Source: a virus. Taken from it: a DNA stretch of 33,317 nucleotides. The translations under genes were made by a program, and so were the position numbers. Every line of letters begins with the position of its first letter. Within the stretch, counting starts at the first letter, position 1. The stretch spans positions 1-33,317 of IMG/VR virus record IMGVR_UViG_3300018080_000409; one strand, given 5' to 3'. Below, piece after piece: positions 8,239-30,582 of the stretch. A model generated the notes under the pieces. That model made no database searches. It saw only the letters and a program-made list of their open reading frames with translations, and was not told where the DNA came from.

Positions 8239-9209
8239 TCATAACCACCTCTGTCTTTACAGATATCTAACGCTTCTTTATACCTTTTAACACTGTTCTC
8301 ATAATTGAAATATTCTACATCATCATAAGCCCTGTTTAAGATGTCATCAACGTCTTTGTTTAACACTGTCTTGAATATGTCCCTAGTCTTATCAGTATTA
8401 AAAGGATCACAGGTTAGTTCTGGAGTTAACTTTGAATATGAAAAGACTCTATCACTACCAACAACAGGTTGTTTCCAACACGCACATTCAACACCGTTCC
8501 TTCCGTAAGTGTGGTATGGGTTTGGATCGTACAGACAAGCTTCACCCATTATTAACTGTGCAAACTGTGGAAAGTTAGTTAACGGAACAATCCTATCAAA
8601 CATTATTCCATGCCAAGATTGCATTGGACTTTTACCATCCATGTAACTAAACATCTTTGTCATGTTAATCTTATCATTTTCTTTTTTAACCTTGTTAAGT
8701 GTCTTGTAAGGTAGATATGTTTGTTCTGCCCACCAATGAAATATAAAACCTATAGAATTTTTAGCATTAAAATCAGTTCCAAGCTTCTTAAGATATTTAG
8801 TGTTTGAAGGGTGAGGCATACAGAAAGCACCTTCAACAAGGTTAGACGTTTGATGAGGTTCAGTTCCAAACACCATGTCACCCATACGTTGATAAGTATC
8901 ATACATCAATGGATCAATACCAAACTTTTCCCAGTATTCACAAACATAATCATTGTTAACTACTAACATGGTACTGCTGTTTTTAAGCTGTTCTCTAATC
9001 AAAGGAATCATAGGCATATCTTTTGGACTTGCATTAACCTGTATAACATCATAATCCTCAAGTCTATCTTTAATTGACCAATAAGTGTTAATCTCACCAC
9101 CTAATGCAAATATCCAGTTGTATAGTCCTGACCTTGCAGGTTGTTCAGCCAAAGTATCTTTAATGTTTTTTGGTATTTCTTTAGCTATCATTACTTGTGT
9201 ATATTTCAT
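8217..9209 (-). CDS. Putative GT-B-like glycosyltransferase
   Basis: A 330-residue soluble protein. The N-terminal half shows Rossmann-type alternation (DYDVIQVNASPKDM, MLVVNNDYVCEYW) and the C-terminal half has a donor-site-like stretch: LIMGEACLYDPNPYHTYGRN, then VECACWKQPVVGSDRV, a pattern close to the E-x-x-x-C/A-G-x-P-V region of GT-B glycosyltransferases. The family is not certain. It overlaps the radical SAM gene by ATGA (9206-9209) and has a GGTGA ribosome site. The neighbours (sugar dehydratase, second glycosyltransferase, radical SAM) suggest a sugar-transfer pathway acting on a virion or host surface glycan. Confidence 0.6.
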   Translation of the reverse strand: MKYTQVMIAKEIPKNIKDTLAEQPARSGLYNWIFALGGEINTYWSIKDRLEDYDVIQVNASPKDMPMIPLIREQLKNSSTMLVVNNDYVCEYWEKFGIDPLMYDTYQRMGDMVFGTEPHQTSNLVEGAFCMPHPSNTKYLKKLGTDFNAKNSIGFIFHWWAEQTYLPYKTLNKVKKENDKINMTKMFSYMDGKSPMQSWHGIMFDRIVPLTNFPQFAQLIMGEACLYDPNPYHTYGRNGVECACWKQPVVGSDRVFSYSKLTPELTCDPFNTDKTRDIFKTVLNKDVDDILNRAYDDVEYFNYENSVKRYKEALDICKDRGGYEWYQKHR

Positions 9210-10270
9210 ATAAAGTTCACCTCATCATCATTATTGTTTATGTAACTAATTAACTTATTAATCTCATGACATTTACAACATACCTGACATTTGTTAAGGT
9301 TTAAGTTCTTTAACATACTAACTCGTTTTGATGAGTTCCAGATGTCATTAAACGATTGATTATATATGTTACCAAAAACAAAGTCTGGATCGTTTAACAG
9401 ATACATACAAACGCATAAGTCACCATTAGAATTAAGTACACATTCAAACTGATGACCTTCACAGATATCATAAGTCTTACCATAATCAGTTTTCATAAGA
9501 TCATTAAACTTGTCCCAAGATATTCTTAGTTCTGTATTACCGTACTTAACACCATCAATAATCTTAAGGTAACTAATTTGTTCAGATAATATTTCTCTGT
9601 TAACTTTTTCTTTGTTATAAAATCTTGGTAACACCGGTCTAACTTGTAAGTAATCAACTTTTAGTTCTGATGCCAGGTCCATTAATGATAAGGCTTCTAT
9701 CATCTGGTTTGGTTCTTGAGGCATATTCATGTTTATTCCAACTTTAATAACTGATTTGTTAATGTCACTAATAACATCAATTACTTTTTCAACTGCATTA
9801 ACACCTTTAATGTCAAGATAATGTTGACGATCGTTTGTGTCTAACGAGTATCTAACCCATTTACAACACGTTTCAATAGTACGATTATACTCTTTTGGAT
9901 AAAGTCCACAAGTCATTAATCCCTGATCAAGTCCAAGTTTCTTAGCATAGTTTAAGATACTACAAAAGTCTGGATGTTGTGTAGGTTCACCACCTCCTGA
10001 CCAAGTAACAGATTTACCACCTGCTTCAACATATTCTTTAAGGAACTGTTTAAGTTTATCTGTCTTGATAACATTATTATTCTTAGCTGAATAACTTGAA
10101 ATGCACCATTTACAAGACAACGGACATCTATCAGTCAAGTTAACTTCAATTAAGATTGGCGAATCAGTTGATCCTGATACTTTGTACTGGTTTAGTTTGT
10201 TACTATGCTTAAACATCTTAACTTGACTATTAAACGGATTGTCTGTTACAACTTGCATATACTCATTCAT
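9206..10270 (-). CDS. Radical SAM enzyme with SPASM-like C-terminus
   Basis: A 354-residue enzyme. The radical SAM iron-sulfur motif CPLSCKWC is seen with Cys49, Cys53 and Cys56 (C-x3-C-x2-C), followed by a GGGEPT motif (SWSGGGEPTQHPDF) that contacts SAM. The C-terminal region holds a second cysteine set (CEGHQFECVLNSNG, CVCMYLL, then KCQVCCKC) like the SPASM or twitch domain, which binds extra clusters in peptide-modifying and sugar-modifying enzymes. It starts 8 nt inside the end of the sugar dehydratase gene. The substrate is not evident; sugar or peptide modification are both possible. Viruses rarely carry such enzymes next to glycosyltransferases. Confidence 0.85.
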   Translation of the reverse strand: MNEYMQVVTDNPFNSQVKMFKHSNKLNQYKVSGSTDSPILIEVNLTDRCPLSCKWCISSYSAKNNNVIKTDKLKQFLKEYVEAGGKSVTWSGGGEPTQHPDFCSILNYAKKLGLDQGLMTCGLYPKEYNRTIETCCKWVRYSLDTNDRQHYLDIKGVNAVEKVIDVISDINKSVIKVGINMNMPQEPNQMIEALSLMDLASELKVDYLQVRPVLPRFYNKEKVNREILSEQISYLKIIDGVKYGNTELRISWDKFNDLMKTDYGKTYDICEGHQFECVLNSNGDLCVCMYLLNDPDFVFGNIYNQSFNDIWNSSKRVSMLKNLNLNKCQVCCKCHEINKLISYINNNDDEVNFI

Positions 10271-11183
10271 CTTGAATCATCTCTCTTAATATTGTATCAA
10301 TATCTTTATACGCTTGAAGCTGGTTCATGTTCCTTAACTTTGAATCGTCAAGACTGTACCTTCTATCATGCCCAGGTCTAGCATGATGAAAATCTATCCA
10401 TTTAATCATGTTATCAGGTAACTTTTCTTTCTTGATAATTTCATAAATTTTTGATGCTAACGTATATACATCAACCTCGATACCAGCAATATGAAATATC
10501 TCTTTAGGTTTAATATCTTTTAACAATAAATAATGTACGTCTGCTGCTACATCCTCTGCATATACCCAGTGTCGTGACGCAACGTCATCTTTACCTGTTC
10601 CGTGTAATATTATCTTTTGTTCGTTCCTTATTGCTTTGATAGTCTTACCTATAAACTTATTTTCATTTTCACCTTGTCCGATTACGTTCATACACCTAAC
10701 GATAAATATGTTAAGTCCAAACGAATGTGCAAAAGAATAAGCTAACATCTCTTGAGATGCTTTTGTTGCTGAATAAGGATTGGAAGGTTTAAACGGAGCA
10801 GATTCATTAAACGATTCAGTACGTTTAGCTGGTCCTAACACTTCATCACTAGAGAACAAACAAACCTTTGCCTGTTCCTGATGTTTTTTGATCCATTCAA
10901 ACAATATACCAGTAAACATAACATTATCAAGAATGAAAGGCATAACATCATCAAGACTTTCATCAACTTGTGTTCTTGCTGCCGTGTGAACGATGTAATC
11001 AAACTTAACCTTATTCATTTGATGTATGTGCTTATTAATGTAAACCCTATCACTGTTTGGAACCCTGTCTGAACTACTTCTTGTTAATGCATAAATTATC
11101 CAGTCTGTATGTTCCAAGAAATACTTAACCATGTTATGAGCTATGAACCCATTTGCTCCAGTAATCAATATCCTTTTAGTCAA
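10263..11183 (-). CDS. NAD-dependent sugar-nucleotide epimerase/dehydratase (RmlB-like)
   Basis: A 306-residue extended short-chain dehydrogenase/reductase. It has the NAD-binding TGANGFI at residues 8-14, the SSDEV phrase matching the S/T-DEV active-site region of dTDP-glucose 4,6-dehydratases, the NPYSATKAS motif with the Y-x3-K catalytic pair, and ARPGHDRRYSLD near the C-terminus, a signature of RmlB-type dehydratases. It would convert an NDP-hexose to a 4-keto-6-deoxy sugar in the cytosol. The start is TTG at 11183, preceded by GGGTGA at a spacing of 6 nt. It overlaps both neighbours by 8 nt, so the cassette is translated as a unit. Confidence 0.85.
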   Translation of the reverse strand: MTKRILITGANGFIAHNMVKYFLEHTDWIIYALTRSSSDRVPNSDRVYINKHIHQMNKVKFDYIVHTAARTQVDESLDDVMPFILDNVMFTGILFEWIKKHQEQAKVCLFSSDEVLGPAKRTESFNESAPFKPSNPYSATKASQEMLAYSFAHSFGLNIFIVRCMNVIGQGENENKFIGKTIKAIRNEQKIILHGTGKDDVASRHWVYAEDVAADVHYLLLKDIKPKEIFHIAGIEVDVYTLASKIYEIIKKEKLPDNMIKWIDFHHARPGHDRRYSLDDSKLRNMNQLQAYKDIDTILREMIQDE

Positions 11184-26248: not shown

Positions 26249-29200
26249 TTATTTAGCTACAGCAAAAAAAGGGTTAGATTGCTTGTTATATTTCCTGTGA
26301 CTACCCTTAATAGCTCTAAACAAACCCATTGAGATGTGTCTAGCGATAAAATTGGCTAATGATAAAGAGATCACACAATTATGAACAATAGTATTCTCTG
26401 CTACATAACTTACATCTTCTTCAACTTCAATATTATAAACATCTTAACGCATATAACCTTCATTAATCCTATGTATAGCTGAAATTAAATAATCACCTTC
26501 AATAGTTACTTTTACATTGTTATGTTTACTCTCTTTCCAAGAAACCCAGTATTGATCTTTATTTTTAGTGCCATACCTTTTCCTTTTTAATTTACTAATC
26601 AAAGCAGGTTTATTCATCCTTAAAAGTATCATCTGCATCTGAAGTGACAACTCTTTACTAATAGAAGCAGTTATATGATTTCCGTTTGGATCAACATATC
26701 CATCACCACAGAAATACCCATCATATAACGCTTTTTGATACTCAACAGGATATTTTAAAAAAGAAGAAGGTAACTTTCTATCTTCACTTTTACCTAAATT
26801 TAAATAAAACTGTATATGTTTTTTCATACCTTTCTGAAGAATAACACAATTATTATACGTATATTGTTTAAATTCTAAACCATATTCTTTTTTCATGCAT
26901 TCTTTTGCTTTCTTAATATCTTTTTTATTCTTAGAATTAAAAGAAAGACAGAACATACCGTCATTTTTACAACTTCCGTTTGCTAGATAAAATCCAATCA
27001 ACCACATTTTTTCCTTAGAATATGGACATTTAATAGTCTGTCGCATGATTGGATACATTGTTCTATAACCATTTGCTAACTGGTGTGGTAATACCCATTT
27101 TGGATTCCAAAACCTTTTTGCTTTACTTTTATCTTTATATTTATAAAAAAAATTACTTTTCTTACAAGCATAAATTGGATGTTCATGTGTAACATCAAAC
27201 TCAAGTGATCCATAAGGTTTGATACGAAGATATTTGCCTTTAAATGGTTTCTTTACTGTTCTCCATACTTTCCTAAACCTGCCTCTATGAGTTAAAACAG
27301 AATCTCCAATCTTAACATCTTCAACAGGTTTCCATCCATTTTCTGTAAAAATCCTTGTCCCCTCCCGAAGACAATCATCGTATTTTCCCAAGCCCTCAAA
27401 CCTAACAAGCTTTTTCCTTGCATCAAATATGATTCCAAACTTAGTAAGTTCATCCATTAAAGTTTTAACTGTTGTCCTTGTTTTAAAATCATCTGGACTG
27501 TAAGGAATTATGAACCCCTTCTTTTCAAACTGATCACGTAACGCTTTAATCAAATCTTCTTTTGAACCAGGTGTAAACTTAAACCCATCAATCGGAATTC
27601 CTTCAGCTTTAAGATCATAAATAAACGTTTTACCAAAAGAACTCTCATCCCCTAGTATCTTAGTGACCTTAAACTTATTAGAAAGCTCTACAATGCGTTC
27701 TTTCTGTATATTGTAGTCCAGACCTTTCCAACGATAAATGTTCAGTAGACGCAGTTTATTTGTGTCTAAACGCTTTTCAAGAATTGTAACAACAGTATAA
27801 TCTGCACCTGATTGAGCAGACATAGCAAAGTCAACACCCATAAAAGTCTGAGTATGGTTAGTTAATTCTTCAGTAAACGATTGGGATGTATCAAGACAAA
27901 CGGAAATCATTGATTCTGGAAACAATTGATCTTGAAGTCCAACAGGATTTAACATAAACTCTTGTTCCCAAGTAAGTGACGAATATGTTTCAATAACTTG
28001 ACCAGTTTTTCTGTCAACAATGTGAACTGCACCATCAACATATTCAATCTTTGAATCAGGGTATCGTTCTTCAAACAAGTTACCTTTATCACCTGTTGCT
28101 GGAAACCTGTCAGTATAAATTGAACTAAAACCTGGATCAGATTCAATCTCATGTAAAACGTCAATAGAACTTTTAGGTGTTCCAACACCAATAAAGAAAC
28201 CCCTATGAGCTCTAATTGTTGGTAATATTGCTTTAGTTAAAATCTCTGAATCTTCATATTCACCAATTTCGTCACAAGCAATACCACCAAAATGAAAACC
28301 TCTAATACTGTTTGTGTAAGGTTTTGATAAAATACGACCACCATTGTTAAGTTCAATCTCAGTACGGCTCCAACTTTTTGATCTGTTCGGTGGAACTAAC
28401 GTTTTTAACATCTTATTAGTTAAGATAGTTTCACGAATGTTACGCAAAACCCCAATAGCTTGTGGTAAAGTTTTAGAGATTATACAATATCCATCAGTGT
28501 GTATCATAGGATTAGTTACGGCTTTCCAAATAAAATAATTAACAAGTAATTGTCTTGTTTTTCCTGAATTGTGAACTAAAATGTTATTTGCAACAAACCA
28601 TTGTTTGACAGGTACGTGTAAATCGTACACATCTTCAATACCTTTATAAGTAATTTTTTGTATCTGACACCATTTAAAGATTTCATTATCTGAACCTTTT
28701 TCAAAACATTGAAACTTATATTTTTTAAACTTATATTGGTCGGTGATGTCATAATCACAATTAAAAAACTTATTATTCTCATTAGCTTTTAGAACTTTGT
28801 TAACATCTTTACCGATAGGCTTAACCAATTTACAAAATTTAGTTTGTTGTTTGGCACGTTCAATCATAACATTAAATTGTCCTTTTGATTTCTTAACATA
28901 AGAATGAATACCTAACCTTTTCAGAAGTGCACAAACATACCTGGCAAATATCTTCTTCAAACCACAATGTAACGAGATAGAAGCATATTTACCTTCCCTT
29001 ACATAAAAACAACCATCACTTGCATATAAACCTTCTAAAAACTTAATTATGTCTTTGTTAGTAGAAGTTAAGATGTCTAACGGAAAATAGTCATCAATCT
29101 TTAAAGAGCGTAACTCTGTTCTTAACCTATTAGGTTTAAATGTTTTTTTACCAGAAGTAACAACATAATCATACCCATTACCTTTCTTATATTTTCTACA

Positions 29201-29740
29201 AATAAGTTCTGGATATTCTTTAATTATTAATTCTTCAAATCTTTTTAACAAATCCAAATTTGTATTAATAAACTTGATAGACTGTCCTTTCTCTAAAGCT
29301 TTGAAACAATAAGAATCTGAGGATAACAAACCTAGTAATAAAGGATTAATTTTACATTTACTACCCCTTTTCTTTTTCTGAACTAAAGTTGCAACAATGT
29401 CACCCACATTTAAATCTTTAACTTGTTTCCAACCTTTAGTTGTAAATATTGGATGTTCAGCAGTTGCGTCTAAATAATTCTTATTATTAAGTTTAATCCT
29501 ATAAGTTTTATTCTTACCCATACACCAAGCATCAGGATGATCTTTAATCTGACAAACTGAACCATCTCTGTTATGAACTACTGTATTACCTGATAAACAT
29601 GACCTAAACGCCATAAGACTAATCCTTTTCTTAGTTTCAACTAACTTAAGCCACTCAGCTTGGTACGAAGTAAGTTCCATACCAATAATGTGTTTAATGA
29701 AATAAGAAGGATCACTTCTCAGCTTTTTCTTGTCCAACAT
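26249..29740 (-). CDS. terL: Terminase large subunit with two inteins and an in-frame stop
   Basis: The frame from ATG 29740 to TAA 26249 is 1163 codons, broken by one TAA at 26444-26446. Removing both inteins gives a 487-residue terminase, a normal length. Extein parts: residues 1-47 end AFRS and join SGKTRQ (Walker A across the first intein); Walker B is ACDEIGEYED (Asp490, Glu491); nuclease motifs are GVDFAMSAQSGADYT, ILGDESSFG and GKYDD joined to CVISLSLANF. The start lies 29 nt inside the small-subunit gene. The enzyme is the packaging motor. The TAA falls inside intein 2, 22 codons before its end, so full-length product would need readthrough, a corrected base or a sequencing error. Confidence 0.85.
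26378..27373 (-). mobile_element. Intein 2 in TerL, in the nuclease motif, with an internal stop
   Basis: An intein of 331 residues plus one stop codon. It starts with Cys790 (CLREGTRIF) directly after GKYDD, has block B VTHEHPIYA with His854, LAGLIDADG-type segments GFYLANGSC (Asn921 where an acid is expected) and LYDGYFCGDGYVD (Asp1013). The last 22 codons (block F: DVYNIEVEEDVSYVAEN; block G: TIVHN) lie after a TAA at 26444, and Cys+1 follows. The homing nuclease may be inactive in one active site. Because the block F/G end is intact and in frame, the stop looks recent or is a base error. Confidence 0.85.
28568..29599 (-). mobile_element. Intein 1 in TerL, inside Walker A
   Basis: A 344-residue intein. 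It starts with Cys48 (CLSGNTVV, block A), has block B DATAEHPIF (91-99), two LAGLIDADG-type segments (LLGLLSSDSY, about 135-143; FLEGLYASDGCF, about 234-246) with acidic residues Asp142 and Asp242, and ends with block G ILVHN followed by Ser (+1). Splicing would rejoin AFRS with SGKT, restoring Walker A. Because the insertion splits the ATP-binding loop, the terminase is inactive until it splices. Confidence 0.9.
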
Positions 29741-30086: not shown

Positions 30087-30229
30087 CTTATCTTCACCTT
30101 TCCCCTTGACAACTTTATAGCTTCCAAATGATTCCATTTGTCTGCTTGTCTTTGATTAATGTTATCTGGAGTAAAAATCATCTTTTCCTGTAAATATACT
30201 GCCAGTTTATACTTTAAAAATCTTATCAT
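30059..30229 (-). CDS. 56-residue basic ORF between receiver and terminase genes
   Basis: An ORF of 56 codons that starts with ATGA overlapping the receiver gene's stop, with GGAGAG 8 nt upstream, and ends inside the small terminase gene in another frame (28 nt overlap from 30086). The protein is basic and Trp/Leu rich (MIRFLKYKLAVYLQEK start). I do not recognise it. The coupling junction supports translation. The alternative is that this is plain spacer in which the terminase frame was extended upstream. Confidence 0.55.
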   Translation of the reverse strand: MIRFLKYKLAVYLQEKMIFTPDNINQRQADKWNHLEAIKLSRGKVKIRWNKIFWLK

Positions 30230-30582
30230 TTTAAATACTCTCCAACCATGTCAACCAAATCAGATGGACTGTAAGGTTTATGTAACGCACCAACAAACAG
30301 GTCAGGTCTGTACAATGGTTCTTTTGATGCAGCATGAAGGTTGCCACTACAAAGCATTATTGGCGTGTCAGGACTACTTTCTTTGACTAAGTCAGCCAAC
30401 TCTACACCGTTCATTACAGGCATTTCATAGTCAGTTATGATAAGGTCACAAGTAACTGTGTTAATTGCCTTGTACGCTTCGTGTCCGTTACTAAAACCTA
30501 CTACATGATATTTAGGTTCAAGTACCATTTCTACTAATTCTCTTACAGTATCGTTATCATCTACTACATATATTGTTTTCAT
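30226..30582 (-). CDS. Stand-alone response-regulator receiver domain
   Basis: A 118-residue protein with only a receiver domain: acidic pair Asp8 and Asp9, phosphoacceptor Asp51 in IITDYEMPVMNG, Ser79 (MLCSGN) at the T/S switch position and Lys102 (LHKPY). All expected active residues are there. No output domain is fused, so it acts like CheY or Spo0F, as a phosphorelay or binding partner. The ribosome site is GAGG about 10 nt before ATG. It precedes the packaging genes, which is an unusual place for a two-component protein in a virus. Confidence 0.9.
   Translation of the reverse strand: MKTIYVVDDNDTVRELVEMVLEPKYHVVGFSNGHEAYKAINTVTCDLIITDYEMPVMNGVELADLVKESSPDTPIMLCSGNLHAASKEPLYRPDLFVGALHKPYSPSDLVDMVGEYLK

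What the first reader, a model, noticed from the sequence alone, without database searches (positions are those of the whole stretch)
26249..27373. In-frame TAA inside a TerL intein, 22 codons before its splice junction
Reading past the TAA at 26444-26446 in the same frame gives an intact intein end (blocks F and G, TIVHN then Cys) and an intact terminase C-terminus that completes the nuclease motif (KYDD joined to CVISLSLANF) and ends SNPFFAVAK. A stop at this point removes the last splice block and 42 residues of terminase, an essential enzyme. No in-frame ATG, GTG or TTG is found between the stop and the junction, so an ordinary split intein translated from its own start is unlikely. Options: base error, nonsense mutation in a dying genome, readthrough, or a rare start such as ATT for a split form with a very short C-terminal intein half.
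Basis: partly seen in the sequence, partly recalled or inferred. Interest (0 to 1): 0.8.

Follow-up and report, generated by a model that had tools for sequence, protein, structure and literature searches.

The report
Phage packaging-gene intein with nonsense codon
A phage's DNA-packaging gene carries an ordinary self-splicing protein insert that is interrupted near its end by one stop codon, most likely a simple disabling mutation or a sequence error rather than a new mechanism.

Summary
The large terminase gene (TerL, 26249-29740, minus strand) carries two LAGLIDADG inteins, at Walker A and at the nuclease motif KYDD^C. The second (26378-27373) has an in-frame TAA at 26444-26446, 22 codons before its end, while all splice residues and the C-extein are intact. 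Read through, it gives a confident Hint + LAGLIDADG model (pLDDT 93.7). The stop falls inside a long predicted beta-strand.

None of 80 homologous inteins has a stop in the aligned part. Eight of them sit in terminases at the same DD^C motif, all contiguous. The codon position is variable in sequence. TAA ends 21 other genes here and no tRNA gene is present. The C-terminal piece has no usable start codon or ribosome-binding site, and there is no RNA structure at the stop. No other gene that could be compared with relatives is broken. Related contigs also carry isolated breaks in essential genes.

Best reading: one nonsense substitution, real or a consensus error, in an otherwise normal cis-splicing intein. 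Reads would be needed to tell which. Split-intein and readthrough readings have no positive support. Interest is low.

The parts
29600..29740 (-). TerL N-extein (47 aa, from ATG)
   Evidence: matches relatives at 42-59% identity
28568..29599 (-). Intein 1 (344 aa), Walker A site, C...VHN then S; intact, LAGLIDADG
27374..28567 (-). TerL middle extein (398 aa), SGKTRQ...GLGKYDD
   Evidence: Pfam Terminase_6C; 54-66% to close relatives
26378..27373 (-). Intein 2 (332 codons, one of them TAA), nuclease-motif DD^C site, Hint + LAGLIDADG
26978..26980 (-). Asn132 of intein 2 in LAGLIDADG motif 1 (Asp or Glu in 41 of 42 homologues); endonuclease probably inactive
26444..26446 (-). In-frame TAA, residue 310 of intein 2
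26378..26443 (-). Last 22 codons of intein 2 (blocks F and G), intact in frame, no start codon
26252..26377 (-). TerL C-extein (42 aa), intact

Best explanation
Intein 2 is an ordinary contiguous (cis-splicing) LAGLIDADG intein in the nuclease motif of the terminase. In the reported consensus one codon at a variable position, 22 residues from its end, reads TAA, most simply through a point substitution. Either this is a real nonsense mutation in the sampled phage molecules, which should prevent splicing and active terminase in that genome, or it is a base error in the consensus; I put these two at about equal odds. Shown: the sequence, the intact flanks, no stop in homologues, no initiation or recoding signal. 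Inferred: that the allele is non-functional and recent.
For: Frame and all splice residues are intact on both sides of the stop: C1, T62, H65, D320, H331, N332. 0 of 80 homologous inteins carry a stop in the aligned part, and the aligned residue varies, G/V/T/A/E/D and others. TAA is the ordinary stop of 21 other genes and there is no tRNA gene. Other genes with relatives are full length. The C-part has no in-frame ATG, GTG or TTG and no Shine-Dalgarno-like site placed for it. RNA around the stop folds no better than shuffles, z 0.86. Isolated breaks occur in essential genes of related contigs: portal TAG in L044, several frameshifts in the L070 contig. The exact flanking DNA is in no other viral contig.
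Against: It is the only interruption found in 33 kb and it lies in an essential gene. No reads and no near-identical genome were available, so mutation and base error cannot be told apart. The sequence after the stop shows no decay, which would also fit a functional stop.
Confidence: 0.9

Rival explanations
1. Natural split intein: the N-part ends at the TAA and a C-part of at most 22 residues plus the 42-residue C-extein is translated separately and trans-spliced.
For: Blocks F and G and the C-extein are intact after the stop. C-inteins of 6-7 aa have been engineered and trans-splice in 4 of 14 inteins (PMC3620165). Atypically split TerL inteins exist, AceL-TerL and GOS-TerL (PMC11766414).
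Against: No ATG, GTG or TTG before Cys+1 and no ribosome-binding site. Known natural C-parts are about 35-40 aa, and the natural atypical ones have a short N-part instead (PMC10189870). The break lies within predicted strand 295-317. No homologue is split there.
Confidence: 0.04
2. Programmed or host-dependent UAA readthrough makes full-length TerL at low level.
For: Intact frame after the stop; terminase is needed in small amounts (general knowledge).
Against: No RNA structure at the stop. TAA is the commonest terminator in this genome and no tRNA gene is present. No relative keeps a stop there.
Confidence: 0.03
3. Genome decay: a defective prophage or dying lineage in which TerL is one of several broken genes.
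For: LAGLIDADG motif 1 has lost its catalytic acid.
Against: All genes with relatives are full length. Loss of the endonuclease acid is expected in the normal homing cycle and does not mark host-gene decay.
Confidence: 0.03

Closest known systems
Contiguous LAGLIDADG inteins of phage terminases at the DD^C motif (IMG/VR loci L095, L097, L105, L109, L117, L127, L145; L093 one residue later)
   Same: Hint + LAGLIDADG intein, same insertion motif in the terminase nuclease domain, same splice residues and block F/G wording
   Different: Their reading frame is unbroken; window intein 2 has one in-frame TAA and Asn in LAGLIDADG motif 1
Inteins in phage DNA methyltransferases (e.g. Lactobacillus phage Nyseid)
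   Same: About 26% identity over most of the intein, same layout
   Different: Different host protein; unbroken frame
Atypically split TerL inteins AceL-TerL and GOS-TerL
   Same: Intein in a phage large terminase
   Different: Short N-part (25-37 aa) and separately translated halves (PMC11766414); here the break is near the C-terminus and the C-part has no start codon
TliVMA intein (PDB 7qsu)
   Same: Best structural match of the read-through model, Foldseek E 1.3e-20, TM 0.79
   Different: 17% sequence identity; a VMA intein, not a terminase one

Membership tests
LAGLIDADG intein, contiguous | Cys or Ser at 1, block B TxxH, C-terminal His-Asn, nucleophile at +1 | tested here: met
   C1, T62, H65, H331, N332, C+1 present
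LAGLIDADG intein, contiguous | Hint fold with LAGLIDADG domain | tested here: met
   Read-through model pLDDT 93.7, Foldseek to VMA inteins E 1e-20; Pfam Hint_2 and LAGLIDADG_3
LAGLIDADG intein, contiguous | One open frame from N-extein to C-extein | tested here: not met
   TAA 26444-26446: by descent a contiguous intein, by this sequence an interrupted one
LAGLIDADG intein, contiguous | Catalytic acid in both LAGLIDADG motifs (needed for homing, not for splicing) | tested here: not met
   Motif 1 Asn132, motif 2 Asp224 kept
Naturally split intein | C-intein translated from its own start | tested here: not met
   No ATG, GTG or TTG in frame, no Shine-Dalgarno-like site
Naturally split intein | Break shared by relatives | tested here: not met
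   0 of 80 homologues have a stop in the aligned intein; none is a close relative of this intein
Naturally split intein | Trans-splicing of the two halves | not testable with these tools
   Needs expression
TAA reassigned to a sense codon | TAA avoided as terminator; suppressor tRNA | tested here: not met
   22 of 38 listed frames end in TAA, this one included; no tRNA gene. The host genome was not available

The most novel reading that the evidence does not exclude
The TAA is fixed in this phage and terminase is still made, through trans-splicing of a C-terminal intein piece of at most 22 residues started at a non-canonical codon, or through programmed UAA readthrough that sets the dose of terminase.
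Probability: 0.06. Interest if true: 0.75.

Novelty: new member of a known kind. Interest (0 to 1): 0.17.

Why it matters
If the stop were fixed and functional, it would be a natural intein with an extremely short C-terminal half, or a readthrough switch on DNA packaging. As it stands the case is mainly a caution: single-contig breaks in essential phage genes also occur among its relatives and need reads or a second genome before a mechanism is claimed. The side result, that the terminase nuclease DD^C motif is a recurrent intein site, is of modest interest.

Tried and rejected
(1) Near-identical contigs: a 30-base pattern with the stop codon left open had no match in viral contigs; the nearest TerL relatives are about 66% identical, so the codon could not be compared directly. 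(2) genome-contig scan: no relative. (3) L070, a relative whose Walker B intein is frameshifted before block F, first looked like a second case of a break at the same place. Its contig has other frameshifts in conserved genes and the break lies at a T-run, so it was set aside as probable sequencing error. (4) RNA structure at the stop: none. (5) The out-of-frame ATG just after the TAA opens only a 10-codon peptide in the wrong frame (sequence).

Full report
Observation. The minus-strand gene 26249-29740 is a terminase large subunit (Pfam Terminase_6C) with two inteins. Intein 1 (28568-29599) sits in Walker A (AFRS^C...VHN^SGKTRQ). Intein 2 (26378-27373) sits in the last nuclease motif (GLGKYDD^C...VHN^CVISLSLANF). 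The open frame ends at TAA 26444-26446. Translation through it gives the last 22 intein residues, 42 residues of terminase and a second TAA at 26249-26251.

What intein 2 is. Hint and LAGLIDADG parts match Pfam, and by tblastn it resembles inteins in phage DNA methyltransferases and other proteins. A profile scan of viral contigs returned the best 80 of 488 homologues. In an alignment with 42 of these every splice residue is present in the window: C1, T62, H65, D320, H331, N332. AlphaFold2 of the read-through protein, with the stop read as one residue, gives mean pLDDT 93.7; its closest solved structures are VMA inteins (7qsu, E 1.3e-20). The stop is residue 310, inside predicted strand 295-317. 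It therefore removes the end of that strand and the whole C-terminal hairpin with the catalytic His-Asn.

Is the stop shared? No. None of the 80 homologues has a stop in the aligned intein, and the aligned residue varies freely (29 G, 9 V, 9 T, 8 A, 6 E and others). That scan keeps the best matches, so badly broken inteins would be under-represented in it. Seven homologues (L095, L097, L105, L109, L117, L127, L145) sit directly after a DD motif, L093 one residue later, all in one frame. PHROGs calls all eight host proteins terminase large subunit. Distant terminases L015 and L018 also have contiguous inteins there. The 25 close terminase relatives readable at this junction have no intein there. 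No contig shares the DNA around the stop. So there is no near relative with which to compare the codon, and none that supports a functional stop.

Is TAA read as sense, or is the C-part started separately? TAA ends 22 of 38 listed frames, this one included, and the contig has no tRNA gene. There is no in-frame ATG, GTG or TTG before Cys+1 and no Shine-Dalgarno-like site placed for a start there. RNA around the stop folds no better than shuffles (z 0.86). Natural split inteins usually have C-parts of 35-40 aa, and the known atypical natural ones have a short N-part instead (PMC10189870; PMC11766414). Engineered C-inteins of 6-7 aa work for 4 of 14 inteins (PMC3620165). A short C-part is thus chemically possible, but no way of making it is visible here.

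Is the genome decaying? Open frames of seven related contigs were matched to the window. Genes with relatives are full length; only TerL is interrupted, by its inteins and this stop. Genes without relatives could not be judged. The relatives themselves give a rough base rate. Eight conserved genes scored in 144 instances (some contigs are counted in two overlapping pieces) show one mid-gene in-frame TAG in a portal gene (L044 nt 5704), and one contig (L070/L091) has several frameshifts. Stops reported for gene 23280 in some relatives probably lie upstream of the true start and were not followed up. Isolated breaks in essential genes are therefore not rare in this collection.

A further feature is Asn in place of the catalytic acid of LAGLIDADG motif 1 (Asp or Glu in 41 of 42 homologues). 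This suggests a dead endonuclease, as expected late in a homing cycle. It does not explain loss of the splicing part, which the phage should need.

Conclusion. The best-supported account is an ordinary cis-splicing intein with one nonsense codon in the reported consensus. Whether it is a real, probably lethal allele or a base error cannot be settled without reads. The mechanistic alternatives have no positive evidence.

Noticed in passing
28568-29599 and 26378-27373: Two LAGLIDADG inteins in one terminase gene, with only short stretches of detectable similarity to each other; the close relatives readable at these junctions lack both.
   Followed up: partly
L093, L095, L097, L105, L109, L117, L127, L145 (from 2501): The DD^C motif of the terminase nuclease domain is a recurrent intein site in several phage groups; the mycobacteriophage survey PMC5050341 reported only ATPase-domain sites.
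   Followed up: partly
L070:1576-2497: A relative has an intein in Walker B (C^DE) with a one-base frame break at a T-run before block F; the contig has other frameshifts, so probably sequencing error.
   Followed up: yes
L044:5704: In-frame TAG in the middle of the portal gene of a related contig (IMGVR_UViG_3300035698_010264).
   Followed up: partly
30226-30582: A stand-alone response-regulator receiver domain (Pfam Response_reg, E 1.2e-19) encoded just upstream of the likely terminase small subunit.
   Followed up: no
9206-11183: A radical-SAM-like protein and a nucleotide-sugar epimerase/dehydratase encoded among structural genes; related contig L043 has both in the same order.
   Followed up: no
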